Shown here: piece after piece, positions 6,282 through 20,459 of the stretch | Numbering within the stretch: the stretch's first letter is position 1 | Layout: every line of letters starts with the position of its first letter | NCBI RefSeq assembly: GCF_900100335.1 | Contig: NZ_FNFE01000002.1 | Coordinates: 1 to 64,000, forward strand | Direction of reading: 5' to 3' | Length of the DNA stretch: 64,000 bases | Origin: Natronorubrum texcoconense | GTDB taxonomy: Archaea; Halobacteriota; Halobacteria; Halobacteriales; Natrialbaceae | Position numbers and translations under genes: made by a program | Notes under the pieces: model-generated | What the model was told of the DNA's origin: nothing | Databases searched by the model: none | Seen by the model: the letters and a program-made list of their open reading frames with translations, nothing else

Positions 6282-7316
6282 TCAGAGGCGTCCTCCGACC
6301 TCGAGCCCACTCCGTAACGCGGCGTGCAGTCGGCCTTCGCCGGCGACCCAGTCGCCGAGACAGTAGAGGCCCGACTCCTCTGCGCGTCGAAGGGGGTCGC
6401 GGTCGACGCCATCCTCCGGCAGCGCGTAGCGCCAGCCTTGGTGGTCCGTCCAGTCGGGCTCGAGCAGGCGCTCGTCCTCGACGATGGCCGCAGTGAGCTC
6501 GGCGAGTGCCTCGAGATTCGCCGCCGGATCTTCGTCGTACCGATCGGTGGACCAGTCGGGACTCGCTTGTACGATCAGCAGCGACTCGCCCTCGGGGACG
6601 TGGCCGGATTTGCACTCCTCCCGTGAGATCCAACCGATTTCGTGTTCCTTGTCGGTGTTGACCAGCGCGTAGTAGGGTCGCTCGAGTTCGAACGGGTAAT
6701 GAAAGACGCCGGTCCAGATCGTTCGATACGGCACGTCGTCGACGGCGTCGACGAGTTCGTCACGGATCTCGGCGTCCCACGCCGCCGTCCGCAGCAACTC
6801 GGCCGTCTGCGGCGCGGGCGGATTCAGCAGAATCGCGTCGAACGGTCCCCACTGTTCTCCGCCGGCGTCCTCGAGCCGCCAGCGTTCCGCGCTGTCGTCC
6901 CGGATTACCGTCTCCACGCGCGTCTCGCGGTGGATCGTCGCGTCGGTATGGGCGAAGAGTCGCTTCGCGAGCTGGGTCAGTCCCGACTCGTAGCTCCACT
7001 TGTGCTCGTCCGCGTCCCGACCCACCGACACCTCGCCCGCGCTGTCGAAGGTCCAGACGGGATCAGTAACGTCGACCAGCCCGTCAGTGTCGAGCGTCTC
7101 CGTGAGCAACTCGACGACGCGCTCGTCGTCCGATTTCACGTAGTTCGCGCCGTAGTCGTAGATCACGTCGTCCCGGCGGCGGGTCGCCGCGCGCCCGCAG
7201 AGGCCGCGGGACTTCTCGAGGACCGTGATCTCGGGGTCGTCGAGTTCGTCCTCGAGCGCGTACGCCGCGGCTGCGGCCGCCGCACCGGCACCGACGATAC
7301 CGATTCGTATCGTCAT
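6282..7316 (-). CDS. NAD(P)/FAD-dependent amine-oxidase-like (renalase-type) oxidoreductase
   Basis: A 344-residue flavoprotein. It opens with the dinucleotide-binding GIVGAGAAAAAAAYAL motif and ends with the second FAD-contact segment GDWVAGEGRLHAALRSG. Between them lies a substrate domain with the DYGANYV segment seen in renalase-like/protoporphyrinogen-oxidase-like enzymes. Substrate unknown. The frame is open to 7391, but the extra N-terminal residues precede the Rossmann strand and look non-coding; the ATG at 7316 (MTIRIG) is the natural start. It is the last ordinary gene before the accessory island. Confidence 0.82.
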   Translation of the reverse strand: MTIRIGIVGAGAAAAAAAYALEDELDDPEITVLEKSRGLCGRAATRRRDDVIYDYGANYVKSDDERVVELLTETLDTDGLVDVTDPVWTFDSAGEVSVGRDADEHKWSYESGLTQLAKRLFAHTDATIHRETRVETVIRDDSAERWRLEDAGGEQWGPFDAILLNPPAPQTAELLRTAAWDAEIRDELVDAVDDVPYRTIWTGVFHYPFELERPYYALVNTDKEHEIGWISREECKSGHVPEGESLLIVQASPDWSTDRYDEDPAANLEALAELTAAIVEDERLLEPDWTDHQGWRYALPEDGVDRDPLRRAEESGLYCLGDWVAGEGRLHAALRSGLEVGGRL

Positions 7317-7387
7317 CAGTGTACGCTTCAGATCCCCACGTATTTGAGTTGAGGGTACGCCATGGCGACCGCATGCGACCGCGGACG

Positions 7388-8401
7388 TCACTTTGCGTCC
7401 AAGCCGACCTGTTCATACCACGTTCGGATCTGTTCGGGAAGTTCCCGATCCTCGCCTCCGAGTGCCGCGCGGGCATAGCCCCCCGTTCGAGAGAGTATTT
7501 CGACGTAGTACAGAAGCGCGATCAGCGCTTTGTGAAGGGGAGACAACGACTCCCACTCGCGACACTTCGATCGCAACACCGAACGAGGCGCGGGCAGATA
7601 CGCTGACGAATCTCGGAGCCGAGATCCCTCACCGACTATCGATCCATACTGTGCGTCGAGTTGATACAGTCCCGTACCGGACTTGCAGCCCTTTGTGACG
7701 ACCTCCAACAGCGACTCGCGAGCGGGATGTGTCAATGTAACGTTCGGACAGAAGCCGGTCTCGAATCCCAATGCAGACACCTCGACCCCGAAGACGACGT
7801 CCTCGCCCGCATCGAGGGTCGGATTGAACCGAAGGCCGGTTTCGAACACGCCGTTCCGAACTGCGAGGCTACAGGTTGGACAAAACCCGTATCGGGTCAT
7901 GAACGCCTCGACGGGGAAGCGAATGTGACTGTCGTACCACCCCGCGACCGTCTCCGCCGCCCCCTCCCTGACGATATCGACGGGAAACCCCACGTAATCA
8001 GCGTCTCGAGCGGCAAAGAGGCCCGCGATTTTCAAGAGCCCGTTCTTCTCGATCGTCATATCCGCGTCGGTGAACAGTATGACGTCCCCGGTCGCTTCCT
8101 CGATCGCGACGTTCCGGGCGCTCCCTGGCGTCTCGTAATCGGTCTCCGTGTGGACAGTCACCTCGTCGATCGACTCCGAAAGCACCCCTAGCTCCGCTTC
8201 GGTCTCCCCGTCCGCTGGCGTGACCACCGTGTGGATTCCAACGGTCTCGTACGTAGCTGCCGCCACTGACGTCACTGTCTTTCGTATCCCATCGGGGTTA
8301 TCGTAGACTGGGATGATGACCGAAATGTCGGGTAAAACCGACTCGTCACCCTCGTCTACGAAAGACTCGAGAGCAGACTCGTTGATCAGATACCGGTTCA
8401 T
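7388..8401 (-). CDS. Glycosyltransferase family 2 (island copy A)
   Basis: A 337-residue GT-A-fold glycosyltransferase. It has the SVIIPVYDN nucleotide-binding start at about residue 26, the metal-binding DAD triad in FTDADM near residue 118, and a GEDVVFG acceptor-site acidic motif near residue 219. No long membrane segments are visible apart from a modest C-terminal hydrophobic stretch (ALIALLYYVEIL). Cysteines in GFCPTCSL may bind metal or stabilise the acceptor loop. It is the left boundary gene of the peptide island. A second GT2 at the right boundary suggests that sugar is added to an island product, but the donor and acceptor cannot be read from sequence. Confidence 0.85.
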   Translation of the reverse strand: MNRYLINESALESFVDEGDESVLPDISVIIPVYDNPDGIRKTVTSVAAATYETVGIHTVVTPADGETEAELGVLSESIDEVTVHTETDYETPGSARNVAIEEATGDVILFTDADMTIEKNGLLKIAGLFAARDADYVGFPVDIVREGAAETVAGWYDSHIRFPVEAFMTRYGFCPTCSLAVRNGVFETGLRFNPTLDAGEDVVFGVEVSALGFETGFCPNVTLTHPARESLLEVVTKGCKSGTGLYQLDAQYGSIVGEGSRLRDSSAYLPAPRSVLRSKCREWESLSPLHKALIALLYYVEILSRTGGYARAALGGEDRELPEQIRTWYEQVGLDAK

Positions 8402-8565
8402 TCGTTCGACTATTCGTACATATCAACCGTTCAAAAATCCCGCGTTCTGTCCGTATCGAGATATGATTTCGAACGACGACCGAACGATTTCGAAGTGACG
8501 GTCAATCAACGACCCGACGACCGGTTACACGGAGGAATCCCACGACTGCAGTTGTGTGGAGGCTG

Positions 8566-10266
8566 TCAGGATAGACGATACGTATCGAACTGTCTGGCCG
8601 CGCGAAGACACGAGACCGGTATCCCGGCGACGAGAAGGACGATCGTGATCCCGCTGAGGAGTTCGAGAGTGGATGGATCGACATCGAGAGCGTACGTCGA
8701 AAGGAGGCCCGTTGCGACGATCCGAGCCGTCTCATCCACGACGATCGCCGTTGCGTACGCTCCACAGATTACGACCATAGAAAACAACCAGAGGGTGTAC
8801 TTACTCGGGAGCTCCAGATTCTTCGAACTGCTGATATCGACGGTTGTAACGCGTGGGAAGGTCGTTCCAATCCCAGTCGCCAGTGTCGCACTAGCAACGA
8901 CGACTGCGGGAGCGGCAAAGCCTACACCGAGCAGTTCGGTCGGCGGCCGATTCGCTGCGACACCGGATCCAACCGCGAGAACCGACGTGACCGGGGCGAC
9001 GACGATCGTTGCGGCCACAATCGACCCCCAAACGACCTGTAGGCCACTGGTCCGTGAGGTCAACAACAACGGTAGCGTTCGTCCTTGATTCCCCAGAACA
9101 TTCGCAGTGAACGCGAGCCCGGCGAACCAACCGCCGTATCCGATCACGAGCCATGGCGTGTACCATGGGACGGATCCGGTCGTCAGCAACTGCTCGAAAA
9201 GCGGGATGGCTCCCAAAAGCGGGAACGCCCCATACGAGAGCGATGCTGGAGACCGATACCGCCGAAGCAGTGACACACGTGCAATCCCGTAGGCTTCTCG
9301 CGTTCTACAGAGCGATCCGAGGATTCGGGCGAACACGGTCGCATCCGTTCCATCGAGTTCGTCTGTCGAGTCTCGGGTCCCTCCGTCACCGTTAGCAATC
9401 TCCTCCACATACCAGGTGTGCCTGGCGGCAAAGACGGTTCCGACAATGCCAACGGGAACGAGTAGTACCGTTGCTGCCACCGCACTCGCTGCGTCGGCGC
9501 TCGAGACGTCTGCCCCGGGGACGGTTGCGAACGCGAGCGCCCCAAGCCAACCGAGCGGTGCCGAGGTGGAAACCGGCCGAACGATATCGACTACCGCGGT
9601 AAAGCCGCCGGTGAAGATCGTCGCGAAGTACGTGATACCGAGGACGACCCCGATAATCGGTTTGATCGCCTTGAGGTGACGGTACTGGCGGATGCCGCCG
9701 AGTAGCGTAACCCCGATCGGATACCCGATCAACCCGGAACTAACCGTGAGGACGACTCCGAGTGCGAGGCCGCTTAGGAACGGACGGACCGTTCCGACGC
9801 CGACCGATAAACCGAGATAAACGACAGCGATGGGCACGAACACGTATGGAGCCATCTTGACGATTTCAGTGAACAAGAGTCCGGGAGCGATGTCTCGTAC
9901 CGGGCGCATCGTTAGGATGGCGCTTTTGTTCCCGATCTCGCCGTTCGATCCGGCACCGTCCGCGACGAAGAGACACACGGTGAACATCCAGCCGACGACG
10001 ACGAGCGTCGTGGCCGTCGCAAGCGGCGGTGAACCGGTGACGAACGATTCACCGACATCGATCATCAACCGGTACGTGAACCACAGCCCGGGGGTCGCCA
10101 GAAGCGCAACGACGACGGTTCCGAGAAGAACGTAATCTTGGGCCCGCAGCCACCGAAGGTCCCGAAGTAATTCGATCCGTGAAACCGAAAGCCAAATCCG
10201 AAGGTTCGGGACGAGGCCCGATCCGGCCATCTCGTCCGAGGACGATTCGTTTCGCATCTGTGTCAT
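8566..10266 (-). CDS. Large polytopic membrane protein (ABC-2-like permease, about 12 TM)
   Basis: A 566-residue integral membrane protein with about twelve hydrophobic segments in two similar halves separated by a hydrophilic, Asp-rich loop around residues 290-320. Each half starts with a cytosolic amphipathic Arg-rich segment (RIELLRDLRWLR near 30; RVSLLRRYRSP near 335), as in paired ABC-2-type permease domains fused into one chain. No nucleotide-binding domain is present, so if it is a transporter it needs an ATPase in trans, such as the one about 6.5 kb away. Its position just downstream of two precursor-like genes suggests export or self-protection; this is inference. Confidence 0.6.
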   Translation of the reverse strand: MTQMRNESSSDEMAGSGLVPNLRIWLSVSRIELLRDLRWLRAQDYVLLGTVVVALLATPGLWFTYRLMIDVGESFVTGSPPLATATTLVVVGWMFTVCLFVADGAGSNGEIGNKSAILTMRPVRDIAPGLLFTEIVKMAPYVFVPIAVVYLGLSVGVGTVRPFLSGLALGVVLTVSSGLIGYPIGVTLLGGIRQYRHLKAIKPIIGVVLGITYFATIFTGGFTAVVDIVRPVSTSAPLGWLGALAFATVPGADVSSADAASAVAATVLLVPVGIVGTVFAARHTWYVEEIANGDGGTRDSTDELDGTDATVFARILGSLCRTREAYGIARVSLLRRYRSPASLSYGAFPLLGAIPLFEQLLTTGSVPWYTPWLVIGYGGWFAGLAFTANVLGNQGRTLPLLLTSRTSGLQVVWGSIVAATIVVAPVTSVLAVGSGVAANRPPTELLGVGFAAPAVVVASATLATGIGTTFPRVTTVDISSSKNLELPSKYTLWLFSMVVICGAYATAIVVDETARIVATGLLSTYALDVDPSTLELLSGITIVLLVAGIPVSCLRAARQFDTYRLS

Positions 10267-10359
10267 CCGTGCATAGGTTGTGTTATCGGTCCGCTACTTG
10301 AATCCTGAAACTACAGGTACTGATACTCGGTGCTCGAAAGATACGACAATGGAACTGCC

Positions 10360-10689
10360 CTACTTTCGCGCTTCGATCAGTTCCTCGATGGACGCGTCCG
10401 CCGTAACCTCTTGTTCGGCTACCTCTGTGAGGGACGTTTGGTTGGACTTATACAGCTCTTCCCCGCTGTTTGCGACTCTCTGAGTCGCACCGTATCCGGC
10501 GACGAACGCGCCGGCACCGTATCCGAGACAGACGGGCGGACAGAGCATGGGTTTCTCTTCGTGGACCGCTTTCCCAGAAACGTCACTCGGAACCTGCTCC
10601 TGTGCGTTCACTTCGATAGCGTTCAGTTGTCTTTCGTCTTCTTCCGATCCACTGACGTGATTCTTCGAATTCACGTTCCTCGTTTCCAT
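10360..10689 (-). CDS. Precursor-like small protein 1 (LCPPVC motif)
   Basis: A 109-residue protein not recognised as a described family. Residues 1-47 are polar and acidic with no signal peptide. Residues 48-67 form a core with Cys50 and Cys54 in LCPPVC followed by the Gly/Ala/aromatic stretch GYGAGAFVAGYGA. Residues 74-109 are acidic and end in TADASIEELIEAR. Core and tail are almost the same as in the 108-residue protein near 19 kb, and related to the 92-residue neighbour. This leader-core-tail layout, beside modification and transport genes, suggests a ribosomally made peptide precursor. An alternative is a small structural or regulatory membrane-associated protein. Confidence 0.75.
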   Translation of the reverse strand: METRNVNSKNHVSGSEEDERQLNAIEVNAQEQVPSDVSGKAVHEEKPMLCPPVCLGYGAGAFVAGYGATQRVANSGEELYKSNQTSLTEVAEQEVTADASIEELIEARK

Positions 10690-10714
10690 ACTTCTATATC
10701 ATGATCTGACTGAA

Positions 10715-10742
10715 ATAGTATTAATCTAATGATCACGGCTAC
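10715..10742 (-). promoter_or_regulatory. Promoter of precursor-like gene 1
   Basis: On the minus strand a TATA-like ATTAGATTAATACTAT lies 26-41 bp upstream of the ATG of the 109-residue gene, consistent with a leaderless or short-leader haloarchaeal transcript. Just upstream (10735-10742) is GTAGCCGT, a weaker match to the GAGTAGCCAT element found elsewhere in the island. Confidence 0.5.
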
Positions 10743-10829
10743 GCAAGTTGTGACGATCGAGTCGAAGTCAACCCTGCTTCACCGATCCACGCGGGCGGGA
10801 ATCGGACGCGCAAAGAACGAATTTTCGGT

Positions 10830-11108
10830 TCAGTCTGCAGCCTGAACCGTTTCAACGATATCGTCGATCGATGCGTCGTCTTCGACTTTCTCGTCGATGT
10901 CTTTGAGTGGTTCCGGATTACCATCGATACACCGTTCTGTGTAACAGCCAGCCGCTGCGCCAGCCGCAAAGCCGGCACCGACATAGGCACCACAGACGTG
11001 CGGACAGAGTACGGGTTCCTCTCCGAGGGTCATTCCCTCGGTTTCTGACGGTATCTGCTCTCGTGCGCTCGCTTCTGCAACCGTTTCGTTTCGGTTATCA
11101 CCTGTCAT
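10830..11108 (-). CDS. Precursor-like small protein 2 (LCPHVC motif, four Cys)
   Basis: A 92-residue divergent relative of the two longer island peptides. It has a polar N-terminal leader (1-33), then LCPHVC with Cys35 and Cys39, and a Gly/Ala-rich hydrophobic run (about 40-54) ending in two further cysteines, Cys55 and Cys60. An acidic tail follows with DDASIDDIVE near residues 77-86. Two more cysteines than its relatives could allow a second disulfide or additional S-linked modification. It lies between precursor-like gene 1 and a methyltransferase gene, all on the same strand. It has its own upstream TATA region, so separate control is possible. Confidence 0.72.
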   Translation of the reverse strand: MTGDNRNETVAEASAREQIPSETEGMTLGEEPVLCPHVCGAYVGAGFAAGAAAGCYTERCIDGNPEPLKDIDEKVEDDASIDDIVETVQAAD

Positions 11109-11121
11109 AGCCGTATTGCGA

Positions 11122-11195
11122 TAAGATTTCTATTTTAGAAATTATTATATCTTTTGGAAAGAATAATGTATACAAATGTAAGAACCGACCTACTC
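11122..11195 (-). promoter_or_regulatory. Promoter region of precursor-like gene 2
   Basis: Very AT-rich stretch 22-45 bp before the ATG. The minus strand reads through TTTCTAAAATAG and a second TATAATAAT block, giving one or two TATA boxes. GAGTAGGTC at 11187-11195 is a partial match to the recurrent island element. Confidence 0.45.
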
Positions 11196-11206
11196 GTGGG
11201 ATTCAA

Positions 11207-12268
11207 TTATTTCGTCGTCCGAAGCCAAAGACTCGAAGGAATGCCGTAGATGTTACCCGACTCGTACTCCTGGCCGATCTCGTCATAACTCTCGAACGCC
11301 TCCGCGAGTCGATCCGGGTGTTTTCGGTGCATGTAGTAAGTCGTCCAAAGGACTTCGAGGTCGTCGTTGTTCGTCAACAACGCTCGAACCAGGTACTGCT
11401 CGTTGAAAAACCAGCGACGCTCGGTGATCCATCGGCGCGGATACTGATACGGGATGAAGATATCATGGACGTGTACCAACACGCCGTCGCCGAGACGAGG
11501 GAGTGCTTCGAGAAACTCATAGAGGACATCGCTTCCGATCGTGGCGATGTGAGACGAGTCGATGAAGACGATATCGTTTTCTGACAGCGATTCGAATACC
11601 GACACCGGGACGTCCTGGACGTTCTCTTTGACGACCTCCGCATCGGTGTGGCGCTTTATGGATCGAGTCGGCGACGGATCGATAACGTAGTGATCGCACT
11701 CTTGCTCGTTTCGCTGGAGTGCCGCGTCTAACACCTGCGTCGAGTTACCACCGCCAATCTCAAGGATACACTCCGGCGAGTGTTCGCGGACCATCGAGTA
11801 TGCAATTTCTGCATCGACGGATTCGAAGTAGCGGTTTTTAATTGCGAACCCGCTGTGTTCGTCGGACGACTCGATGAGCGCGAACTCGTCGTACTCGTTT
11901 TTGTACTTCGATTCGAATGTCGAAAGGAGTTCGAATTGTTCGTCGACACGGAGGTTGATGCCGGGCAAGTCCGACGGCTCTTCCCAGACGTCTGGGAGCG
12001 AGTGGACGTCCGGGATCGGCGACGACCAGTGGACCGGCGTCACGTGAATACCTAGTTTCTCCCACATGGCGAACGCGTCGACAGAGACGTATTCCGGCGA
12101 GGAACGGAGCAACTCTGCGATTGCGCCCTGTTCGGCCAGCGCGTTATCGATTTTCTCGGTGGCCTCCGGATACTCCTCTCGAATTGTTTCCGCGATTTCT
12201 CGGAGTTCGTCGTCGTCGAGTTCTTGTTTGAACCACAGATCCAGTCTGTGCATGCCATATCGTTTCAT
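11207..12268 (-). CDS. Class I SAM-dependent methyltransferase (island copy A)
   Basis: A 353-residue protein. The C-terminal two thirds form a Rossmann methyltransferase with SAM motif ILEIGGGNS at 168-176, an IDPSP acidic strand, FIDSSH and a VHVHD metal-type motif, resembling the Methyltransf_24/macrocin O-methyltransferase and cephalosporin-hydroxylase-like group. The first 110 residues are a helical extension of unknown role that contains GIHVTPVHW. Such enzymes often methylate natural products or sugars. It is the most upstream gene of the leftward block and is divergent from the SdpA-like gene, sharing a 193-bp AT-rich promoter region. Substrate unknown; modification of the peptide or of an attached sugar is inferred. 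Confidence 0.8.
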   Translation of the reverse strand: MKRYGMHRLDLWFKQELDDDELREIAETIREEYPEATEKIDNALAEQGAIAELLRSSPEYVSVDAFAMWEKLGIHVTPVHWSSPIPDVHSLPDVWEEPSDLPGINLRVDEQFELLSTFESKYKNEYDEFALIESSDEHSGFAIKNRYFESVDAEIAYSMVREHSPECILEIGGGNSTQVLDAALQRNEQECDHYVIDPSPTRSIKRHTDAEVVKENVQDVPVSVFESLSENDIVFIDSSHIATIGSDVLYEFLEALPRLGDGVLVHVHDIFIPYQYPRRWITERRWFFNEQYLVRALLTNNDDLEVLWTTYYMHRKHPDRLAEAFESYDEIGQEYESGNIYGIPSSLWLRTTK

Positions 12269-12306
12269 CGATGTAAAATAAATCTAGTTAATTAACTCGT
12301 TCAAGA

Positions 12307-12316
12307 ATGGCTACTC
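12307..12316 (-). promoter_or_regulatory. Recurrent island element GAGTAGCCAT (copy 1)
   Basis: The minus strand reads GAGTAGCCAT 39-48 bp upstream of the methyltransferase start, just before a TTAATTAACTAGATTTATTT TATA-like region. The same 10-mer is found at 17728-17737 and 19158-19167, each time between island genes. A regulator-binding site is one explanation; an end of a small mobile repeat is the other. Confidence 0.4.
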
Positions 12317-12426
12317 GAGTGATAAACCACGAATAAGTAGTACCTGCAACTGATTCGGACTACGGACCCTCTTTCCACCAACTTTCGATACGAGTAATCA
12401 CATATACTGTTGCTCATTTCCAAAAG

Positions 12427-12437
12427 TTTAAAATTAG
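12427..12437 (+). promoter_or_regulatory. TATA box of the sdpAB-like operon
   Basis: GTTTAAAATTA lies about 25-35 bp upstream of the ATG of the SdpA-like gene, so transcription should begin essentially at the start codon (leaderless). This spacing supports the start chosen at 12462. Confidence 0.55.
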
Positions 12438-12461
12438 CGTATTATCAACATTATTCTCGAC

Positions 12462-13046
12462 ATGATGGGGTCAATACCAATCGTAGTTATTCCAGTCGTA
12501 ATGGGACTGTGGGTGCTCGCAACTATCGGAACAACGGTGGAAACGTGGAGCGACAATTCACCGCTATCCGACCGGTTAGGGCTCCTTACGTTCCTCATAC
12601 CCAACTGGAACTTCTTCGCGCCGCATCCAGGACAGTACGATTACCACCTCCTGTATCGGGACAAACTCTCTGACGGAGAGGTCACGGCTTGGACCGAGAC
12701 GACCGAACTCACGGATACGCCACAACGGTTGAAATGGCTCTGGAATCCGAACCTCTATCCGTCTAAGGGGCTGTTCGATGCGGGTCAAGAACTGACGAAG
12801 CGACTCGCGACCCCTGAGGAACCGATCGACATTGACGACGAACCCGAGGAGTCGGAGGGTGGAAACCTCCAACCGATCGAGTCGGACGATCATCTCCTAA
12901 CGATCCAGTACATGATGATACTCAACTACGTCTCGAAGATGGACCATCGCGACGATGCGGAAAAAACGCAGTTTATGCTGATGCGTAGCAGCCTCCGCCA
13001 AGACGACGCCACGCCGATGTTCGTTTCTAACTTCCACAAGCTATGA
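12462..13046 (+). CDS. SdpA-like membrane-anchored protein
   Basis: A 194-residue protein with one N-terminal membrane segment (about residues 4-24) and a hydrophilic outside or inside domain. The motif PNWNFFAPHPGQYDYHLLYRD near residues 46-67 resembles the W-x-FF-[AT] motif of SdpA, which with the HTTM protein SdpB is needed to mature the SDP toxin in Bacillus. Proteins of this type frequently pair with HTTM genes. An acidic insertion is at about 118-135. The stop codon overlaps the start of the next gene (ATGA), so the two are translationally coupled. Function in archaea is not established; the assignment rests on motif plus pairing. Confidence 0.55.
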   Translation: MMGSIPIVVIPVVMGLWVLATIGTTVETWSDNSPLSDRLGLLTFLIPNWNFFAPHPGQYDYHLLYRDKLSDGEVTAWTETTELTDTPQRLKWLWNPNLYPSKGLFDAGQELTKRLATPEEPIDIDDEPEESEGGNLQPIESDDHLLTIQYMMILNYVSKMDHRDDAEKTQFMLMRSSLRQDDATPMFVSNFHKL

Positions 13047-13906
13047 TCGGGATAGAGCTCACTACATTTATGACAGTACCGGAGATCGATCTCGAAACAG
13101 CAGTTCGTCTTATTACGGTTTTGACTGGACTACACTTGCTGTACAGTAGCGCCGAACTCTACAGTGTTCGCCGACAGTACGGCGTCGGCGGCTTCATGAG
13201 TTGGAAGGTCGTCTCCGTCTACGTCGGTAACATACGTGGAATATCGCTGTTATCGCCGCTTCTCGGCCGCTTTCCGACGCTGATACTCGTCCGGTTCTGC
13301 CTCGGCGGAGCGTTGATAGGGATCGGAGCGTTGGGATCGATGCTACCTCTTTACCAAGTCGTTCTCCCCGTAGCCGTCTTCGTCGCGCTCGTACTCGACG
13401 TTCTCGTGATCGTTCGCCACCCCGCGGGACTCAGCGGTGCGTTCGATATGTCGCTGGTTACCCACGCTGGATTATTCGTCGCGACGGCCATGCCGAACAA
13501 CCGAACAATCCAACTTGCCGGAATACTCTTTATCGCCACGCAGGGGATTCTGGGGTACTTTTTGGCCGGTGTCGCAAAGGCCATCGGTAAGGAGTGGCGA
13601 ACGGGCGAGGCTCTCGAGATGGTGCTCTCGACGAAGACGTGGGGTGACGACCGCCTTTACGAGCTGATTCAGAGCCATGCTTGGTTGAAACGGATCGTAG
13701 GGGGCAAAATCGTCCTCTTTGAAGTTCTGTTCCCGGTAGTGTTGTTCGTCGACCCGCAGATCGTGGTCGCCATCTTCGCAATCGGTATCATCTTCCACGT
13801 CGTCAACGCAGTCGTCATGGGGATCAACAGTTTCGTCATCATGTTTCCAGCAACCTATCCGGCTATCTACTACGCGAATCAGCTGATTCCGTGGACGATC
13901 GTCTAA
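13043..13906 (+). CDS. HTTM-family (SdpB-like) polytopic membrane protein
   Basis: A 287-residue protein with about seven hydrophobic segments. The segment GYFLAGVAKAIGKEWRTGEAL (about 173-193) matches the family pattern of HTTM proteins such as SdpB and gamma-carboxylase-like enzymes ('F-x-G-x-x-K ... W-x-x-G-x-A-L'). A later His in FHVVNAVVMG, followed by a phenylalanine/methionine-rich helix, also fits. The family includes vitamin-K-dependent carboxylases and SdpB; the latter is required for active toxin production. ATGA overlap with the SdpA-like gene indicates one operon with fixed stoichiometry. It converges on the proteasome gene. Confidence 0.6.
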   Translation: MIGIELTTFMTVPEIDLETAVRLITVLTGLHLLYSSAELYSVRRQYGVGGFMSWKVVSVYVGNIRGISLLSPLLGRFPTLILVRFCLGGALIGIGALGSMLPLYQVVLPVAVFVALVLDVLVIVRHPAGLSGAFDMSLVTHAGLFVATAMPNNRTIQLAGILFIATQGILGYFLAGVAKAIGKEWRTGEALEMVLSTKTWGDDRLYELIQSHAWLKRIVGGKIVLFEVLFPVVLFVDPQIVVAIFAIGIIFHVVNAVVMGINSFVIMFPATYPAIYYANQLIPWTIV

Positions 13907-14004
13907 CGGATTCACCGGCTCACACGGAACTCGACCGTAGATACGGGTTTCGGTAGGAACCAGTCACGATCAGACTCGGTATGGCCGATCTCGGGTCCGG
14001 GTGT

Positions 14005-14688
14005 TCACACGTCGGAAAAATCGTCGTGCCCATCAATGGAAACGCCATCGGCAGTGATCGTCCCGATGAAAACGCCGTCTCCCGATTGAGTGTCCCTGCT
14101 GACACCGGACTGAACCGCTTTCGCCGCGAGACGAACTGCTGTGTCGACCGAGAGGTCGTCCTCGTAACGGTCTTCTAACACGCCATAAGCGAGTTGCATC
14201 CCGGAGCCGGTCGCCACGAAATCTTCACCGATAACGCCACCTGCAGTATCGACCGCGACGACGGAGATACCGTTCTCGTCGACGCCGCCGATCAGCGGAG
14301 AGATGTTCTGTATCTCGTGTTCTCGGACTAGATTCCCCGCGAGTGTCGCAAGCGATTCGATCGACAGCGGGTCCCCGTGTCGAATTTCATAGGAATCAGC
14401 CTCCTCGCGGAGCTGGCGTGCGAACGCGCGAGCGGGACCAATGTGTCCGACGAGAGTCATTGCCGCCGTCGGGTGGACCTTCGTTATTTTACGGAGGTTG
14501 CGATTTTCGACAAACGTTCCACCGTTGACCGTCGCCCGGGCATCGGTTGCGAGTACGACACCGTTGCGTGCAGTTAGTCCGACCGACGTCGTGCCCGTTT
14601 TCATCGCACCGGAGCCGCCGACGGCGTCCGTCAGCTCTCGTTCGTCCTGCTGTACGTCTGCCGCTCTCCCACCACGGTTTAGGTGCAT
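14005..14688 (-). CDS. psmB: Proteasome beta-subunit paralogue
   Basis: A 227-residue N-terminal-nucleophile hydrolase. A 32-residue propeptide should be cleaved before Thr33 (MKTG|TTSVGLT), which becomes the catalytic Thr1. Asp at mature position 17 (LATDARAT) and the lysine in NLRKI, equivalent to Lys33 of other beta subunits, are present. The GSGMQLAYGVLE segment and the late SGDGVFIGTI strand are typical, so it should be active. It differs from the usual haloarchaeal beta subunit in its short propeptide and the loop VNGGTFVENR. It is surrounded by island genes, suggesting a second, specialised beta subunit, possibly for processing or clearing island peptides; that role is inference. Confidence 0.88.
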   Translation of the reverse strand: MHLNRGGRAADVQQDERELTDAVGGSGAMKTGTTSVGLTARNGVVLATDARATVNGGTFVENRNLRKITKVHPTAAMTLVGHIGPARAFARQLREEADSYEIRHGDPLSIESLATLAGNLVREHEIQNISPLIGGVDENGISVVAVDTAGGVIGEDFVATGSGMQLAYGVLEDRYEDDLSVDTAVRLAAKAVQSGVSRDTQSGDGVFIGTITADGVSIDGHDDFSDV

Positions 14689-14708
14689 TTTCGTCTAGTT
14701 AGAACAAT

Positions 14709-14864
14709 AACAATAAAAATTTTCCGACCGGAAGTTTCGAACCGTCGGCCGCGACGGTCTCCGAGGCACTGGCCGTAGCGTTCGAAAAGGGATTTGTCCC
14801 CGTCTGGGCGTTCACTCGGCCACACAACCCAATAAGTCGTCCGGATGGGGAAGATATATATTAA
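14709..14864. promoter_or_regulatory. Divergent promoter region, psmB paralogue / small membrane gene
   Basis: On the minus strand AAATTTTTATTG (14709-14720) lies about 22-32 bp before the psmB paralogue ATG. On the plus strand GATATATATTAATG (about 14851-14864) lies about 25 bp before the ATG at 14886. Both transcripts would be leaderless or nearly so. Confidence 0.5.
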
Positions 14865-14885
14865 TGCAGAAAGTACATGTATCAT

Positions 14886-15056
14886 ATGAGCAACGCTGAA
14901 ACTACGAGTGATTACGACTGGGCAACTGGAATGCGGTTTGCCGCGTTCTTTTTGGCGTCGCTAGTTCTTGTTTATGACGTACTAATCGGGATCTTACTCC
15001 TTGCACTCGTACTCATTCTCATCTCGGCGGTCGAACGCCGCTCAGACCAGTCGTGA
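14886..15056 (+). CDS. Small membrane protein, 56 aa
   Basis: A 56-residue protein (MSNAETTSDYDWATG...) with one long or two short hydrophobic segments covering residues 17-48 (FAAFFLASLVLVY and IGILLLALVLILI), ending in a short charged tail. It has a well-placed TATA box and an ATG start. It is followed 10 bp later by another membrane-protein gene, so the pair is probably one operon. The family is not recognised. Small hydrophobic proteins beside toxin-maturation and transporter genes are often immunity factors, but nothing in the sequence proves that. Confidence 0.6.
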   Translation: MSNAETTSDYDWATGMRFAAFFLASLVLVYDVLIGILLLALVLILISAVERRSDQS

Positions 15057-15066
15057 TATCGGGACG

Positions 15067-15432
15067 ATGAGCCGTCGACTTCCGACTTCGTTCGAGGAAG
15101 TTGCTGGTCGATCTGTGAACGAACTTATCAGCGGCGGGTTGCTGGTGTTGTGTGCCTTCGTGGCCGTCACCGCTCTCAACGGCGTTTTCGAACCCAACAA
15201 CGAACTGGTTGACCTCGCTCGAATTTGTGCGTACCTACTAGCCGCACTGGTAATGATCTTCGTGACCCCGCTTACCGGCGTCTTCGCACTCGTTGTATTC
15301 GAGTTGGCGTTTTCGTCGCCGCTTGACACCGGTGAGACCGCTTTCGCTATCGTCGTTTTCTGTCTCGTCTGGCTGCTCGTTTTCGGTGGCCGCGCGGAAC
15401 GGGACCAGTCTGCCGAACGTTCCGGTCGATAG
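15067..15432 (+). CDS. Membrane protein with three to four TM segments, 121 aa
   Basis: The chosen ATG gives a 121-residue protein with hydrophobic segments at about 21-43 (ISGGLLVLCAFVAVTALNG), 55-85 and 93-108 (FAIVVFCLVWLLVFGG), and a charged C-terminus. A TTG start at 15001 would add 22 residues but overlaps the preceding gene, so the ATG 10 bp after its stop was preferred. Not recognised as a known family. Its pairing with the 56-residue protein and its place between the proteasome paralogue and the ABC exporter suggest immunity or a transporter accessory function (inference). Confidence 0.6.
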   Translation: MSRRLPTSFEEVAGRSVNELISGGLLVLCAFVAVTALNGVFEPNNELVDLARICAYLLAALVMIFVTPLTGVFALVVFELAFSSPLDTGETAFAIVVFCLVWLLVFGGRAERDQSAERSGR

Positions 15433-15684
15433 CGAAACCTTGACCCGTCTGACTTCTTCCCTCTCTAGTAGCCACTGATAGACAACCGGCGCACGCGGAT
15501 CGGTCCGGCCGGTACGTTCGACGGACACCGGTTGAAGACCGTTGCAGTTATCCTGTGAGGACGACTGTCCGCCGTCGTCCACTCATAGGGATTCTCGTAG
15601 CCAACCGGAGATTCCGAGGCCTGGCCTTCGGCGGTGTCGCTCAGTTCTTCGTCGGAAAACTATGAACACTTACGATAATCCCTA

Positions 15685-16485
15685 TCAGTAGTGACCGAGA
15701 ACGCCGAGTTTTCGTGCCCGGCGTTGGCATAACTCGAAAATGCCGTATCCGACCACCAGATAACCGACACCGACGGCGACGAGGACGGTGACATCCGTCA
15801 GCGAGAACTCCCAGAGTCGTGTTCCGTTCCGCATCGCCGTCTGAATCATTTCGCTCCCCTTGGCGAGCGGGAGGAACTCCAACAACATGATCTCGAAAGC
15901 CGGTGCGCTGATAAGGCCGATAAACCCGAATTGAAGAAGCATCACCCAACTCTGGATGTTCTTGTAAAGAACAGTGAATCCGCCGACGGCGAACCCGATA
16001 CCGAACACCGACGCAATGGTAAACACGAGTATCGGGATGATCGTCACGAGGTCGATACTGAGGGTCGTTCTCGTCGTCACTAGCATGATCAAGAGGATCA
16101 AAAACGCCGTGAGAAACGCGATTATCAGTTTCGCGATCGATTTGACGAGCATGATGACGCCGAACCCAAACGGCGTGAGTGCGAGACGTTCTAGGGTTCC
16201 CCAACTCGCTTCCATCCCGATTTCGTTCGCGATATTCGAGTAGGCGGTCAGAGACATGATCCACAGGAAATACCCGACGATAATCGCCTCTAAGGACTCG
16301 GAGAACCCGTCGCCGACGATCATCTGCCCACCGAGAACGATGATGCCGAACATCACGAGAAAACCGACTAACTGACCGGCGACTTCGACAGGGTACCGAA
16401 GGAAAAGAGTCACTTCACGCATGAAGATTGCGCGCGTCAACGTGATTACGCCGCCCCGTTTGGTGTTTGCTGTCTGCTCCGACAT
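15685..16485 (-). CDS. ABC-2 type transporter permease
   Basis: A 266-residue membrane protein with six hydrophobic segments and the ABC-2 permease layout. An N-terminal amphipathic segment ends in FMREVTLFLRYPVEVAGQL, the first TM pair surrounds a short outside loop, and a longer outside region precedes the last helix near residue 235. It ends in a positively charged cytosolic tail (RRARKLG). The gene lies 4 bp downstream of its ATPase gene. ABC-2 exporters move lipids, polysaccharides, drugs or bacteriocin-like peptides out of the cell. Island context favours export of, or protection from, the peptide. Confidence 0.85.
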   Translation of the reverse strand: MSEQTANTKRGGVITLTRAIFMREVTLFLRYPVEVAGQLVGFLVMFGIIVLGGQMIVGDGFSESLEAIIVGYFLWIMSLTAYSNIANEIGMEASWGTLERLALTPFGFGVIMLVKSIAKLIIAFLTAFLILLIMLVTTRTTLSIDLVTIIPILVFTIASVFGIGFAVGGFTVLYKNIQSWVMLLQFGFIGLISAPAFEIMLLEFLPLAKGSEMIQTAMRNGTRLWEFSLTDVTVLVAVGVGYLVVGYGIFELCQRRARKLGVLGHY

Positions 16486-16489
16486 GGTT

Positions 16490-17512
16490 CTATTCGACGA
16501 TCTCCATGAATATCTCTTCCAGATCAGCGTTTCTCGTTTCCACCGAAAGAAGCTGAATGTCCGTCCCCTCGAGATACGCCGTCAGTTCGAAAAACGTGGA
16601 AGTATCGGCGGCGACGACAAACCTGGTTCGATCCTCGTATCTGGTGAGTTCCGTCACAGTAAACCTCTCTCGAAGGTCGGCGGCCAACGCTTCGGAGAGG
16701 CTTCTGACGCTGAAACGGTACTCCTGTGTTTGGAACATATCGAGGAGGTTTTGGACCGTATCGTCGGTAACGATAGCCCCGTCGTTCAGAATGATAACAC
16801 GGTCGCAGATGGACTGAATCGTATCCATGTCGTGGCTGGTCAACAGGACGGTGAGTTCGCGCTCGTCGACCAGTTGCCGAAGCTGTCGACGAAGCGTGAG
16901 CGAACTCTCGATATCAAGTCCAAGCGTCGGTTCGTCGAGAAAAACAACGGAGATGTCGCGGGCGAGTGCGCTGGCGAGTGCGACTTTTTGTTTCATTCCG
17001 CGTGAAAGGTTTCGCACCTGTTCATCGCGCTTGTCCAACAAATCCAGTTTGCGGAGCAGTCGTTCGTGCTCCTGTTCGATCGCATCGGGGTGTTCTCCGC
17101 CGACGCTGGCAAAGAATCGGAGATTTTCGTCGACGGTCAGCCGCCAGTAGTCGTTTCTGGCCCCTTCCATCATCGCGTCGATATCCTCGTAGACGGCCGT
17201 CGGATTCTCCGAAATGTCGTGGCCGTTGATCCGCACTGATCCGGAATCGGGATAGATCAGACCGAGAATCGACTTAATAAGCGTCGTTTTTCCTGCGCCG
17301 TTCGGTCCGAGAATACCGACGACGGAACCCGAATCCACGGTGAAAGAAACGTCGTCGACGGCGGTGACGACGTCGGTTCCGTTCTCGAACGTTTTTGAAA
17401 CTCCTTCGATGGCGACTGCAGGCGTATCCGCTTGGTCGTCGCTCGGTTTGGATTGGTCGCCTGCCGACTGTTCCCGATCGCCGCCGGCGTCACGATCAAA
17501 CAGTTCATTCAT
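16490..17512 (-). CDS. ABC transporter ATP-binding protein
   Basis: A 340-residue cytosolic ATPase that powers the adjacent ABC-2 permease. Walker A is GPNGAGKTT at 69-77, the signature LSRGMKQ starts at 169 and Walker B is VVFLDEP at 189-195, followed by a D-loop and a switch His in TSHDMDT. The first 30 residues are a polar extension. Residues about 255-340 form an extra C-terminal domain of the type found in drug- and bacteriocin-exporting DrrA/CcmA-like ATPases. The gene is divergent from the second methyltransferase gene across a 340-bp region. Confidence 0.9.
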   Translation of the reverse strand: MNELFDRDAGGDREQSAGDQSKPSDDQADTPAVAIEGVSKTFENGTDVVTAVDDVSFTVDSGSVVGILGPNGAGKTTLIKSILGLIYPDSGSVRINGHDISENPTAVYEDIDAMMEGARNDYWRLTVDENLRFFASVGGEHPDAIEQEHERLLRKLDLLDKRDEQVRNLSRGMKQKVALASALARDISVVFLDEPTLGLDIESSLTLRRQLRQLVDERELTVLLTSHDMDTIQSICDRVIILNDGAIVTDDTVQNLLDMFQTQEYRFSVRSLSEALAADLRERFTVTELTRYEDRTRFVVAADTSTFFELTAYLEGTDIQLLSVETRNADLEEIFMEIVE

Positions 17513-17852
17513 ATTTTGTTCAAGTTAGCAATTATGTCTTCGACACTTAAATTTCATTAATGAAACGAGCAGAGTTGATCCCGGTGGTCTTCCTGCATCA
17601 ACGACTGCGGAGAGCCATTGAAAAGACGGTTCGTCTGTCGTGGTGTGGCCGGCTATATAGTAACAACTGAAACGATTCACACACTGATCCCACAGCCGCC
17701 ATGCGATCAGGTGTGCAGTGACTTTCAATGGCTACTCTGGCTTTCACGGTGGGCCGTACGAGCTAAGAAACGCCTCCACCAATCCTCCTTTGCTACTATC
17801 ATAATACGTCCTAAACCGACAGTTTAATTGGTTGTATACAGAGTCAGTATGA
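17513..17852. other. Intergenic region with inverted repeat, possible MITE remnant
   Basis: No convincing gene. A 16-bp near-perfect inverted repeat is present: GAGAGCCATTGAAAAG at 17610-17625 and, on the opposite strand, GAGTAGCCATTGAAAG from 17737 to 17722. Inside it lies a second, less perfect repeat (CACTGATC/GATCAGGTG). The 128-bp unit has the look of a small non-autonomous inverted-repeat element. Its right arm also contains the recurrent island 10-mer. Promoters for the ATPase and methyltransferase genes should lie on either side. Confidence 0.4.
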
Positions 17853-18635
17853 ATGATGTCATATGACAACCCTGCGGAAAAAGTGTATACGAATCAAGCC
17901 GAACTCTTTGCACCCATTCTCGAGAACATGGAGGAGGCAGGGTCCAGACAGGTACGAAACGTTTTGCAGACGATCAGAGAGAAACGCGGAGGACGGCCCG
18001 ACCGTGTTCTCGATATCGGGTGTGGAATCGGCCGACACGCCATAGGGTTCGCCGAGGAGGGATGTCGGGTGGACGGTATCGACATCTCGGAGGCGTTCGT
18101 CAAGCAAGCACGGGAGAAGGCCGAACAGCGAGGGGTAGCCGACCGTGCATCGTTCGAAGTGTTCGATATGCGTGATCTCGACGAGTGGGACGAGAACTAC
18201 GATCTGGTTACAAACCTATTTGATTCGTTTTGTTATTATGGGAAAGAAACCGACCGGGCCGTCCTCTCGAAAATCAACGACCTGCTCGAGGACGACGGCT
18301 ACCTGTTCATGCAGTTAGGGAACAAGGAGGCGACGATCCGAAACTTCGAGGAGTCGACCGTCAAGGTGGTCAACGGGAACTTACACGTACAGCAAATGGA
18401 GTTCGACGTGAAAACGAGCCGCCTCAGCAGCACCATCGATGTCTTTTCTATTATCGACGACGGATACGAACACGAAGACACGATGGAATTCGAGCGACGG
18501 CTGTACGCACCCGCAGAATTTCGAGACATGCTCGAGACGGCCGGGTTCGACGAGATTACGATGATCGGCGAAGGGGCTAACCCCGGTCCGGAGTTGACCT
18601 TCGACTCGCCACGACTCGTCGTCTTGGCGACGTGA
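17853..18635 (+). CDS. Class I SAM-dependent methyltransferase (island copy B)
   Basis: A 260-residue methyltransferase. The SAM site is VLDIGCGIG at 52-60, followed by an acidic GIDISEAFV strand and a post-motif FDSFCYYG segment. A small beta cap lies near residues 165-205, where SAM-dependent small-molecule methyltransferases of the Methyltransf_11/25 group bind their substrates. Two consecutive ATGs open the frame; the second (MSYDNPAEK) is as likely as the first. It lies between the ABC exporter and the third precursor-like gene, convergent with the latter. Target unknown; the island peptide or its sugar are candidates. Confidence 0.82.
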   Translation: MMSYDNPAEKVYTNQAELFAPILENMEEAGSRQVRNVLQTIREKRGGRPDRVLDIGCGIGRHAIGFAEEGCRVDGIDISEAFVKQAREKAEQRGVADRASFEVFDMRDLDEWDENYDLVTNLFDSFCYYGKETDRAVLSKINDLLEDDGYLFMQLGNKEATIRNFEESTVKVVNGNLHVQQMEFDVKTSRLSSTIDVFSIIDDGYEHEDTMEFERRLYAPAEFRDMLETAGFDEITMIGEGANPGPELTFDSPRLVVLAT

Positions 18636-18762
18636 TCCGGAGTAGCGCAGACAACAGCACTCACCGCCAATCAGTACTTGATCGTACAGTTGTTGCTGCA
18701 GTGGTCGGGGCCACGACAGTCGGTCGATGCTGCAAAATGAAGACGATTCGACGATCGATCGC

Positions 18763-19089
18763 TTAGTCGTCGGTTCGCGCCTCGAGCAACTCGTCGATGG
18801 ATGCGTCTGCCGTAACGTCGCGTTCGGCCATGTCTCGAATAGCCAGCGACTGCTGTGCTCCGTTTGCCACCTCCTTGGTAGCAAGGTATCCGGTCGCAAA
18901 CGCGCCGGCACCGTATCCCAGACAGACCGGGGGACAGAGCATCGGATTCTCGTCGTGAATCGCTTTGCCTGCTTCAGTCTTCGCGGCCACTTTCTCCTGT
19001 GCGGCCGCTTCGACATCATTGAGCTGGTGGCTCGTTCCGTTATCGGTCTCATCTCCGCTCCGAGGGGTGAGTTTACTACTACGTGACAT
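18763..19089 (-). CDS. Precursor-like small protein 3 (LCPPVC motif)
   Basis: A 108-residue close relative of precursor-like protein 1. Residues 1-48 are a polar leader. Residues 49-72 read PMLCPPVCLGYGAGAF plus ATGYLAT, with Cys52 and Cys56. Residues 80-108 are an acidic tail with TADASIDELLEAR. Conservation with the copy 8 kb away is concentrated in the Cys/Gly core and the tail while the leader has drifted, as expected if core and tail carry function. No signal peptide is present, so export would need a dedicated system. It is flanked by a methyltransferase and a glycosyltransferase gene. No described archaeocin is recognised in it. Confidence 0.75.
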   Translation of the reverse strand: MSRSSKLTPRSGDETDNGTSHQLNDVEAAAQEKVAAKTEAGKAIHDENPMLCPPVCLGYGAGAFATGYLATKEVANGAQQSLAIRDMAERDVTADASIDELLEARTDD

Positions 19090-19110
19090 CTGCGTATGAT
19101 TTTACCAATG

Positions 19111-19167
19111 TATATTATATAAAATTACCGGCAACTAAGGAAATTCAGCGAAATACTATGGCTACTC
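19111..19167 (-). promoter_or_regulatory. Promoter of precursor-like gene 3 with GAGTAGCCAT element (copy 3)
   Basis: On the minus strand TTTTATATAATATA (19111-19124) lies 22-35 bp upstream of the ATG, a strong TATA box for a leaderless transcript. GAGTAGCCAT (19158-19167) lies 69-78 bp upstream of the start, in the same orientation as in front of the first methyltransferase gene. Confidence 0.55.
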
Positions 19168-19222
19168 ACCTTGTTGATTAATGTTCGCCAGTGTCGTCGG
19201 AGAACGCAGTTGCAATCCTGAC

Positions 19223-20158
19223 TCACCATCCGCCGGTGGCATCCATCGAATCCATTCGCGACCAGAGCGTCTGAACGCCGGACCGACCGAACAGCGACGC
19301 CACGGCCGTGAGATACTGCACTTTCGTCGCGTCGGGATAGTGGTACGCGTACTTTCCGTAGTGGTAGATCATACGCGGTGACCACCGTCTGTCGAGAAGC
19401 TCCAATTTGGCCAACAGGAAGTGCTTTCGCGACTGACCGTACTGTTCTATCGTGTCCGGCAGATGGTCATATACCTCGGCGTAGTGTTCGAACAGCGCGA
19501 TTCGTCCCTCGATCGAATCTTCGGTGAGGCTCAAGCCGTGGTAGCCCTGCATCTCGACCAGTTTCTCTCCCACCGTCGAAAACCCGGTAACTGCGGCGAG
19601 TTCGATCACCACGGCGATATCGTCGTGCGGGAGCTCGCGCATGGGCGGAATCGCCTCGAGCGTGTCCCGTTCGATGAGCATTCCCGACAGCGAGAACGGT
19701 GCGACGAGGTTCATGAGCGTGAACTCAAGGACCGCTTCCGGATCGACTACCTCGTCGGAAGCAAAGAAGGGGTAGATCTGTTGTGGTGTAAGTAGACCGT
19801 CCATGATACAACACGCGACTCCGACATCGTCTTCGAGCGCCTCGACGAGTCGCGACAGTCCGCCGTTGACGACGACGTTGTCGTCGTCCAGAAAGTAGAG
19901 GTAGTCGCCGTCGGATATCGACGCACCGATATCGCGTGCGATTGCGACCTGCTCGAGTGCGTTATCGACGCTGAATGAGCGGATCGGGACATAGCGGACC
20001 CCGTATTCTTCTGCGACCGGTCGAGCCGTTTCGCGACCCGACATGTCGATGACGTAGATGTCGGCATCTACGTTCGGTTGATGGATGACACTCTCAATCG
20101 CACGCTGCAGTTGGTCGTTCCTGAAATAAGTGGTTATAACGACGCTTACCGTGCTCAT
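19223..20158 (-). CDS. Glycosyltransferase family 2 (island copy B)
   Basis: A 311-residue GT-A glycosyltransferase. It opens with VSVVITTYFRND and has the metal-binding DDDN motif in LYFLDDDNVV near residue 92. An acidic acceptor segment LPHDDIAV follows near residue 183, and the C-terminal 100 residues are helical. The frame is open to 20251, but the ATG at 20158 places the first strand directly at the N-terminus as in family members. It lies downstream of precursor-like gene 3, mirroring the left half of the island where a GT2, a methyltransferase and peptide genes are also together. Sugar and acceptor are unknown. Confidence 0.82.
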   Translation of the reverse strand: MSTVSVVITTYFRNDQLQRAIESVIHQPNVDADIYVIDMSGRETARPVAEEYGVRYVPIRSFSVDNALEQVAIARDIGASISDGDYLYFLDDDNVVVNGGLSRLVEALEDDVGVACCIMDGLLTPQQIYPFFASDEVVDPEAVLEFTLMNLVAPFSLSGMLIERDTLEAIPPMRELPHDDIAVVIELAAVTGFSTVGEKLVEMQGYHGLSLTEDSIEGRIALFEHYAEVYDHLPDTIEQYGQSRKHFLLAKLELLDRRWSPRMIYHYGKYAYHYPDATKVQYLTAVASLFGRSGVQTLWSRMDSMDATGGW

Positions 20159-20459
20159 GATTCGATCGAAATTGAGTCGTGATTGATTGATTTCGGTGTT
20201 CGTCCTCGGCTCATTGAAACTCCGTGGGCCAGTTTTCCACTCCGGCCACATGATTTTATCGAGTATCCTGGCTGTTCTCTATACGGATTGGCCTAATATA
20301 ATATACAGCTAGCCAAACATAGCAGTGATTCTGTCAGCGAAGAACCTGCTGGCGTCTGCTGTAGGCGACCGAAATCGTCTCGAATCGACCTCTCGCGGCC
20401 GGTGCCGTCGCGCACGCGACCGACAGCGAAAGTGATCGTCCTGTTACGACGGCCGATGG

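What the first reader, a model, noticed from the sequence alone, without database searches (positions are those of the whole stretch)
14005..14688. Active-looking proteasome beta paralogue embedded in the peptide island
All catalytic elements (Thr33 after MKTG, Asp17, Lys33-equivalent) are intact, but the propeptide is short and the sequence differs from canonical haloarchaeal PsmB. Its neighbours on both sides are membrane, exporter and toxin-type genes. It could be a specialised beta subunit that trims island peptides or removes misfolded precursor.
Basis: partly seen in the sequence, partly recalled or inferred. Interest (0 to 1): 0.6.

Follow-up and report, generated by a model that had tools for sequence, protein, structure and literature searches.

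The report
Extra proteasome subunit with altered pocket
A salt-loving archaeon carries a third, intact-looking proteasome cutting subunit inside a 13-kb inserted peptide-toxin-like gene island, and this copy has changed residues in its substrate pocket that are invariant in 125 other archaeal copies compared here, so it may cut proteins at different sites; its link to the island's peptides is unproven.

Summary
In detail: 14005-14688 (minus strand) encodes a 227-aa proteasome beta-type protein with an intact Thr-nucleophile catalytic set. The genome has two other betas (a canonical solo psmB and one paired with an alpha), so this is an extra paralogue, psmB3. It lies inside a 13.1-kb low-GC insertion (about 7.31-20.45 kb) that is absent, with a clean empty site, from all nine congeneric genomes. 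The island looks like an SDP-like peptide cluster: three related peptides, SdpA/SdpB-like proteins, two methyltransferases, two glycosyltransferases, ABC exporter. No orthologue was found; best identity is 57%. psmB3 keeps every catalytic residue, but of 25 near-invariant positions in 125 archaeal betas it changes exactly three: V49I, Q53R and A164G. Positions 49 and 53 line the S1 pocket; V31L, E35T and S48H also change. Best reading: an active, horizontally acquired beta subunit with a charge-altered S1 pocket that makes an alternative 20S particle, probably disfavouring hydrophobic and favouring acidic P1 residues (inferred). A role in trimming island peptides is not supported: 12 related SdpAB loci lack a beta gene nearby, and psmB3 appears to be its own transcription unit. 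A SalI/InpE-like self-resistance copy is possible, unproven.

The parts
14005..14688 (-). psmB3: third proteasome beta-type subunit, 227 aa
   Evidence: PF00227 143 bits; TIGR03634 194 bits, below its 224 cut-off; two further betas in the same genome
14593..14688 (-). 32-aa propeptide MHLNRGGRAADVQQDERELTDAVGGSGAMKTG, predicted to be cleaved before Thr33
   Evidence: alignment to mature archaeal betas starting at Thr1; leaderless-type promoter upstream of Met1 only
14590..14592 (-). codon of Thr33 = catalytic Thr1
14425..14526 (-). S1-pocket region with a one-residue insertion (N55) and V31L, E35T, S48H, V49I, Q53R in mature A. fulgidus numbering
   Evidence: V49 and Q53 are invariant in 125 of 125 comparison betas
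14689..14748 (-). AT-rich (TTTTTATT) core-promoter-like element about 23-31 nt upstream of Met1, leaderless type
   Evidence: inspection only
7311..20447 (.). 13.1-kb low-GC insertion (island) between an amine-oxidase-like gene and a GNAT gene
   Evidence: absent in 9 of 9 congeneric genomes, where these two genes are adjacent; GC about 0.47-0.61 against 0.64-0.70 outside
10360..10689 (-). peptide A, 109 aa, motif KPMLCPPVCLGYGAGAF
   Evidence: 59% identical to peptide C
10839..11108 (-). peptide B, about 90 aa, motif PVLCPHVCGAYVGAGF
   Evidence: 38% identical to peptide C
18763..19089 (-). peptide C, 108 aa, motif NPMLCPPVCLGYGAGAF
12462..13046 (+). SdpA-like protein, co-occurs with SdpB-like in 12 other loci
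   Evidence: DUF5819 weak hit
13043..13906 (+). SdpB-like membrane protein
   Evidence: TIGR04033 21 bits, far below its cut-off of 178
11207..12268 (-). Methyltransf_24 methyltransferase
   Evidence: 57% homologue next to SdpAB in L131
15685..16485 (-). ABC-2 type permease
   Evidence: weak PF12698; 39% homologue at L135
16490..17512 (-). ABC transporter ATPase
   Evidence: PF00005
17853..18635 (+). class I methyltransferase
   Evidence: PF13649; homologues in L133
8566..10266 (-). 566-aa membrane protein
   Evidence: homologue next to SdpAB in L133
7388..8401 (-). GT2 glycosyltransferase a
   Evidence: PF00535
19223..20251 (-). GT2 glycosyltransferase b
   Evidence: PF00535; homologues in L131 and L133

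Best explanation
psmB3 encodes an active 20S proteasome beta subunit that arrived with a 13.1-kb peptide-biosynthesis-like island. Shown: an intact catalytic set, two other betas and two alphas in the genome, presence only in this genome among its genus, and substitutions of S1-pocket residues that are invariant elsewhere. Inferred: after removal of its 32-residue propeptide it assembles on the host's alpha rings (no alpha of its own is in the island), alone or mixed with PsmB1, giving an extra proteasome subtype. Inferred: Arg at position 53 plus loss of Glu35, with Leu31, His48 and Ile49, gives the S1 pocket a positive, reshaped base, so cleavage shifts from after hydrophobic residues towards acidic or polar P1, by analogy with Glu53 of eukaryotic beta2 and Arg45 of beta1. 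Why the island carries it is not established. A general protein-turnover role under island expression is most likely; a specific link to the peptides is a minority option.
For: Catalytic residues are all retained: T1, R19, K33, S129, D166, S169 and position 47 are conserved in 125 of 125 comparison betas, and position 17 is D or E. Of 25 near-invariant positions psmB3 changes exactly three: V49I, Q53R, A164G. Glu53 in beta2 and Arg45 in beta1 are the charged S1 bases that decide ligand selectivity (PMC13180746). Archaea often carry 2-3 alphas or betas and can build several core particles (PMC13022661). The empty site in 9 of 9 congeners shows acquisition with the island. Own leaderless-type promoter and an acidic, halophile-type pI of 4.7, like psmB1 and psmB2. 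Two tree checks keep it within haloarchaeal betas and reject pairing with own psmB2.
Against: Assembly, processing, expression and activity are untested. There is no orthologue, so purifying selection cannot be measured, and the long branch could include relaxed constraint. A164G and several other changes lie outside S1. The S1 enrichment is modest (hypergeometric p 0.01-0.08 depending on the sequence set and invariance threshold), the position set was chosen after seeing the alignment, and the comparison sequences are related. Residue 45, the other specificity position, is unchanged (Leu). The direction of the specificity change is by analogy only.
Confidence: 0.58

Rival explanations
1. Hitchhiker: psmB3 is a fast-drifting duplicate or transferred beta, caught in the island by chance, with little or no function of its own.
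For: Very long branch (1.31 against a median of 0.14); no orthologue in any searched genome; no beta gene in related SdpAB loci; other orphan betas in the genus are dead, lacking Thr1; a fast-evolving own psmB1 duplicate is not excluded (p-AU 0.32).
Against: Open frame with 22 of 25 near-invariant positions kept, including every catalytic one, and a good promoter-like element. A decaying copy would be expected to lose some of these.
Confidence: 0.17
2. Target-copy self-resistance: the island makes something that inhibits the cell's proteasome, and psmB3 is the insensitive replacement beta, as InpE is in the fellutamide cluster and SalI is for salinosporamide.
For: A duplicate beta lies within a biosynthetic-looking cluster and came in with it; changes concentrate in the S1 pocket, where inhibitors bind, including position 49; precedent: inpE, a beta6 homologue in the fellutamide B cluster, confers resistance (PMC10734572). 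SalI is from own knowledge.
Against: No NRPS, PKS or warhead gene in the island; SDP-like peptides act at the membrane in Bacillus (own knowledge); the related peptide loci manage without a beta copy; V49I is conservative.
Confidence: 0.1
3. One reading: a specialised beta that trims island peptides or clears their misfolded precursors.
For: Co-location in one insertion; predicted new P1 preference; the peptide precursors have conserved acidic C-terminal segments that an acid-preferring site could cut.
Against: 12 SdpAB-like loci lack a nearby beta; psmB3 is convergent to SdpAB and outside their transcription unit; in Bacillus SdpA and SdpB are themselves required for maturation (PMC13343845); a sealed 20S chamber usually degrades to short peptides (own knowledge).
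Confidence: 0.1

Closest known systems
Haloarchaeal PsmB (canonical beta, TIGR03634; own psmB1 on contig C4)
   Same: Fold family, Thr1/Asp17/Lys33/Ser129/Asp166/Ser169, TG-T cleavage site, acidic composition
   Different: 53% identity, below the equivalog cut-off, changed S1 pocket (L31, T35, H48, I49, R53), one-residue insertion, 32-aa propeptide, located in an accessory island
Second, alpha-linked beta of haloarchaea (psmA2-psmB2 pair; own copy on C2)
   Same: An additional beta paralogue in the same genome
   Different: psmB3 has no alpha next to it, keeps more of the canonical sequence, and grouping it with own psmB2 is rejected (p-AU 0.004)
Alternative catalytic betas of vertebrates (immuno- and thymoproteasome) and charged S1 pockets of eukaryotic beta1/beta2
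   Same: Works-like comparison: paralogous active beta with altered S1 giving another cleavage preference
   Different: Not homologous as subtypes; charge at position 53 is Arg here, Glu in beta2; island-borne and single-genome
SalI / InpE self-resistance proteasome subunits
   Same: Extra beta-type gene inside a biosynthetic cluster, with changes at the inhibitor pocket
   Different: No proteasome-inhibitor biosynthesis genes recognised; product and resistance untested
SDP system of Bacillus (sdpABC-sdpIR)
   Same: SdpA/SdpB-like pair beside short cysteine-containing hydrophobic peptide precursors
   Different: SdpB score far below the family cut-off; three peptides, methyltransferases, glycosyltransferases and a proteasome beta are added

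Membership tests
Proteasome family PF00227, beta type | Profile match above the curated cut-off | tested here: met
   143 bits against 22.4
Proteasome family PF00227, beta type | Thr1 nucleophile behind a propeptide with G-T junction, plus Asp17, Lys33, Ser129, Asp166, Ser169 | tested here: met
Proteasome family PF00227, beta type | Autoprocessing and assembly with an alpha ring into a 20S particle | not testable with these tools
   needs expression and purification; two host alpha genes exist
Canonical archaeal PsmB (equivalog TIGR03634) | Score above equivalog cut-off 224 bits | tested here: not met
   194 bits: filed as a beta paralogue, not as the canonical PsmB equivalog
Canonical archaeal PsmB (equivalog TIGR03634) | Conserved S1 pocket V49 and Q53 | tested here: not met
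   Ile and Arg; 125 of 125 comparison betas have Val and Gln
alpha-linked haloarchaeal second beta | Adjacent alpha gene | tested here: not met
   no alpha in the island
HslV / bacterial 20S beta | Best match to those families | tested here: not met
   bacterial 20S beta 64 bits against a cut-off of 191.9; no HslV hit
SalI/InpE-type self-resistance beta | Within a cluster making a proteasome inhibitor | tested here: inconclusive
   within a peptide-biosynthesis-like cluster; product activity unknown
SalI/InpE-type self-resistance beta | Confers resistance | not testable with these tools
   needs inhibitor and mutants
SDP-type peptide system (for the island) | SdpB family score above the TIGR04033 cut-off | tested here: not met
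   21.4 against 178.4 bits; called SDP-like only

The most novel reading that the evidence does not exclude
A dedicated proteasome beta subunit is part of an archaeal antimicrobial-peptide island: it replaces the host beta in the 20S particle with an S1 pocket of altered charge, either making the producer insensitive to its own product (an archaeal counterpart of SalI/InpE) or giving a peptide-specific protease.
Probability: 0.18. Interest if true: 0.8.

Novelty: new variant of a known kind. Interest (0 to 1): 0.46.

Why it matters
If active, it would be an archaeal proteasome subtype whose cleavage specificity was changed at S1 positions invariant in all betas compared here, and which can be gained in one step with an antagonism-type island. 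That gives a simple homoheptameric system to test how position 53 sets proteasome specificity. If the island product acts on proteasomes, it would be a first lead to an archaeal proteasome inhibitor.

Tried and rejected
Orthologue searches: genome-contig scan, order, family, relatives and phylum searches, plasmids, phages, viral contigs: nothing above 57% identity. Beta gene near other SdpAB-like loci: none within about 10 kb of 12 loci. Mobile-element ends or long direct repeats at the island borders: none found, best shared words are 8 bases; no transposase or integrase among the profiled genes. Second copy of the psmB3 stretch in the own genome: only weak similarity to psmB1. Recent copy of own psmB2 rejected (p-AU 0.004); copy of own psmB1 not rejected (0.32). 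Start at Met29: no promoter upstream, so Met1 preferred. Simple search for comparable short cysteine peptides beside other SdpAB loci gave only one convincing candidate, a cysteine-rich protein in L131. Structure prediction was not run: at this identity the fold is not in doubt and no coordinates could be inspected. The mBio 2026 haloarchaeal protease-precursor paper (PMC12893001) concerns an unrelated extracellular system.

Full report
OBSERVATION. The ORF at 14005-14688 is on the minus strand and encodes 227 aa. It matches Pfam Proteasome at 143 bits and archaeal beta subunits of solved 20S particles. Thr33 follows MKTG and is Thr1 of the mature chain. Asp17, Arg19, Lys33, Gly47, Ser129, Asp166 and Ser169 are kept. 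The upstream AT-rich element (TTTTTATT) lies about 23-31 nt before Met1, as in leaderless haloarchaeal genes, and no such element precedes Met29. So the propeptide is most likely 32 aa.

GENOME INVENTORY. The genome (4.64 Mb, 99.9% complete) has five PF00227 genes: psmA1 on C4, canonical solo psmB1 on C4, an adjacent psmA2-psmB2 pair on C2, and psmB3 in the window. Three betas are not unique: G009 in the same genus and G042 also showed three. Archaea are known to carry two to three alphas or betas (PMC13022661).

ISLAND. From about 7.4 to 20.3 kb the GC content falls to 0.47-0.61, against 0.64-0.70 outside. In all nine congeneric genomes the amine-oxidase-like gene (6282-7391) and the GNAT gene (20460-21191) are adjacent, and the 13.1 kb between window positions about 7311 and 20447 is missing (junctions). 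psmB3 lies in the middle. The other genes are three related peptide precursors with the motif LCPxVC, an SdpA-like/SdpB-like pair, two methyltransferases, two GT2 glycosyltransferases, an ABC permease and ATPase, a 566-aa membrane protein and small membrane ORFs. SdpB-like homologues occur in 11 other genomes of 392. Their neighbourhoods share SdpA, and in some cases the methyltransferases, GT2, ABC and membrane protein, so the module is real and recurrent. None of those 12 loci has a proteasome gene within about 10 kb. The island is therefore SDP-like, but it does not pass the SdpB family cut-off.

RELATIVES OF psmB3. Searches of 61 relatives, 392 genomes of the order, 125 of the family and 393 of the phylum (overlapping sets), plus named genomes, plasmids, phages and viral contigs, gave no match above 57% identity. 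A tree with non-haloarchaeal outgroups keeps psmB3 inside haloarchaeal betas, on a very long branch, loosely among betas that sit next to an alpha gene. The data reject a pairing with own psmB2 (p-AU 0.004) but not a fast-evolving duplicate of own psmB1 (p-AU 0.32). Long-branch effects make its exact place unsure; an earlier quick tree left it unresolved. Other orphan beta-like genes in the genus and family (L105, L107, L109) lack Thr1 and look dead by sequence, unlike psmB3.

S1 POCKET. Against 125 active archaeal betas (haloarchaea, other members of the phylum, and Archaeoglobus and Methanocaldococcus of solved structure), 25 positions are at least 98% invariant. psmB3 keeps 22, including every catalytic one, and changes exactly V49I, Q53R and A164G; each of these three is 125 of 125 in the comparison set. 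Thermoplasma beta, not in that set, also shows Val and Gln at the aligned places. Positions 49 and 53 are S1-lining; the list of S1 positions (20, 31, 35, 45, 49, 53) is from own knowledge of 20S structures, partly supported by PMC13180746. Within the 51 haloarchaeal psmB1-type sequences, S1 residues V31, E35, V49 and Q53 are invariant and all four differ in psmB3, with S48H next to them. The enrichment is modest statistically (hypergeometric p 0.01 to 0.08 over the four ways it was counted), was looked for after seeing the alignment, and the sequences are not independent. In eukaryotes, Glu53 of beta2 and Arg45 of beta1 form the charged S1 bases (PMC13180746). By analogy Arg53 should disfavour hydrophobic and favour acidic P1 residues. 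This step is inference.

MECHANISM. Shown: intact catalytic beta gene, extra to two others, strain-specific, island-borne, with an unusual S1 pocket. Inferred: processing, incorporation into host alpha rings, altered cleavage preference. Unknown: why it is in this island. General alternative turnover is preferred; self-resistance (precedent InpE, PMC10734572), peptide trimming and hitchhiking remain. The trimming idea is weakened by the absence of beta genes at related loci and by psmB3 being a separate, convergent transcription unit.

VERDICT. Its functional proposal is only partly supported. Filed as a PF00227 beta-type paralogue; it fails the canonical PsmB equivalog cut-off, so it is not called PsmB proper.

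Noticed in passing
window 7311-20447: Whole 13.1-kb SDP-like peptide island inserted between two genes that are adjacent in nine congeners; no recognisable integrase or long border repeats.
   Followed up: yes
window 10360-10689, 10839-11108, 18763-19089 (minus strand): Three paralogous peptide precursors with LCPxVC-GYGAG core-like motif; peptides A and C share a conserved acidic C-terminal tail (DVTADASI-EL-EAR type); almost no homologues elsewhere.
   Followed up: partly
L131 (G359) 57-690: 210-aa cysteine-rich protein, halocin-C8-like by eye, about 8 kb from an SdpAB/methyltransferase/GT2 cluster related to the window's island.
   Followed up: no
L105, L107, L109 (G022, G002, G006): Orphan beta-like proteasome genes that lack the catalytic Thr1, two of them in the window's genus: apparently dead paralogues.
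   Followed up: partly
G269 C1:3046111 and C1:3068561: An alpha-linked beta gene lies about 22 kb from an SdpB-like locus; probably chance given the number of loci compared.
   Followed up: no
window 14886-15056 and 15001-15432 (plus strand): Two small membrane-protein ORFs next to psmB3, the first preceded by a TATA-like stretch; possible immunity proteins, no family hit.
   Followed up: no
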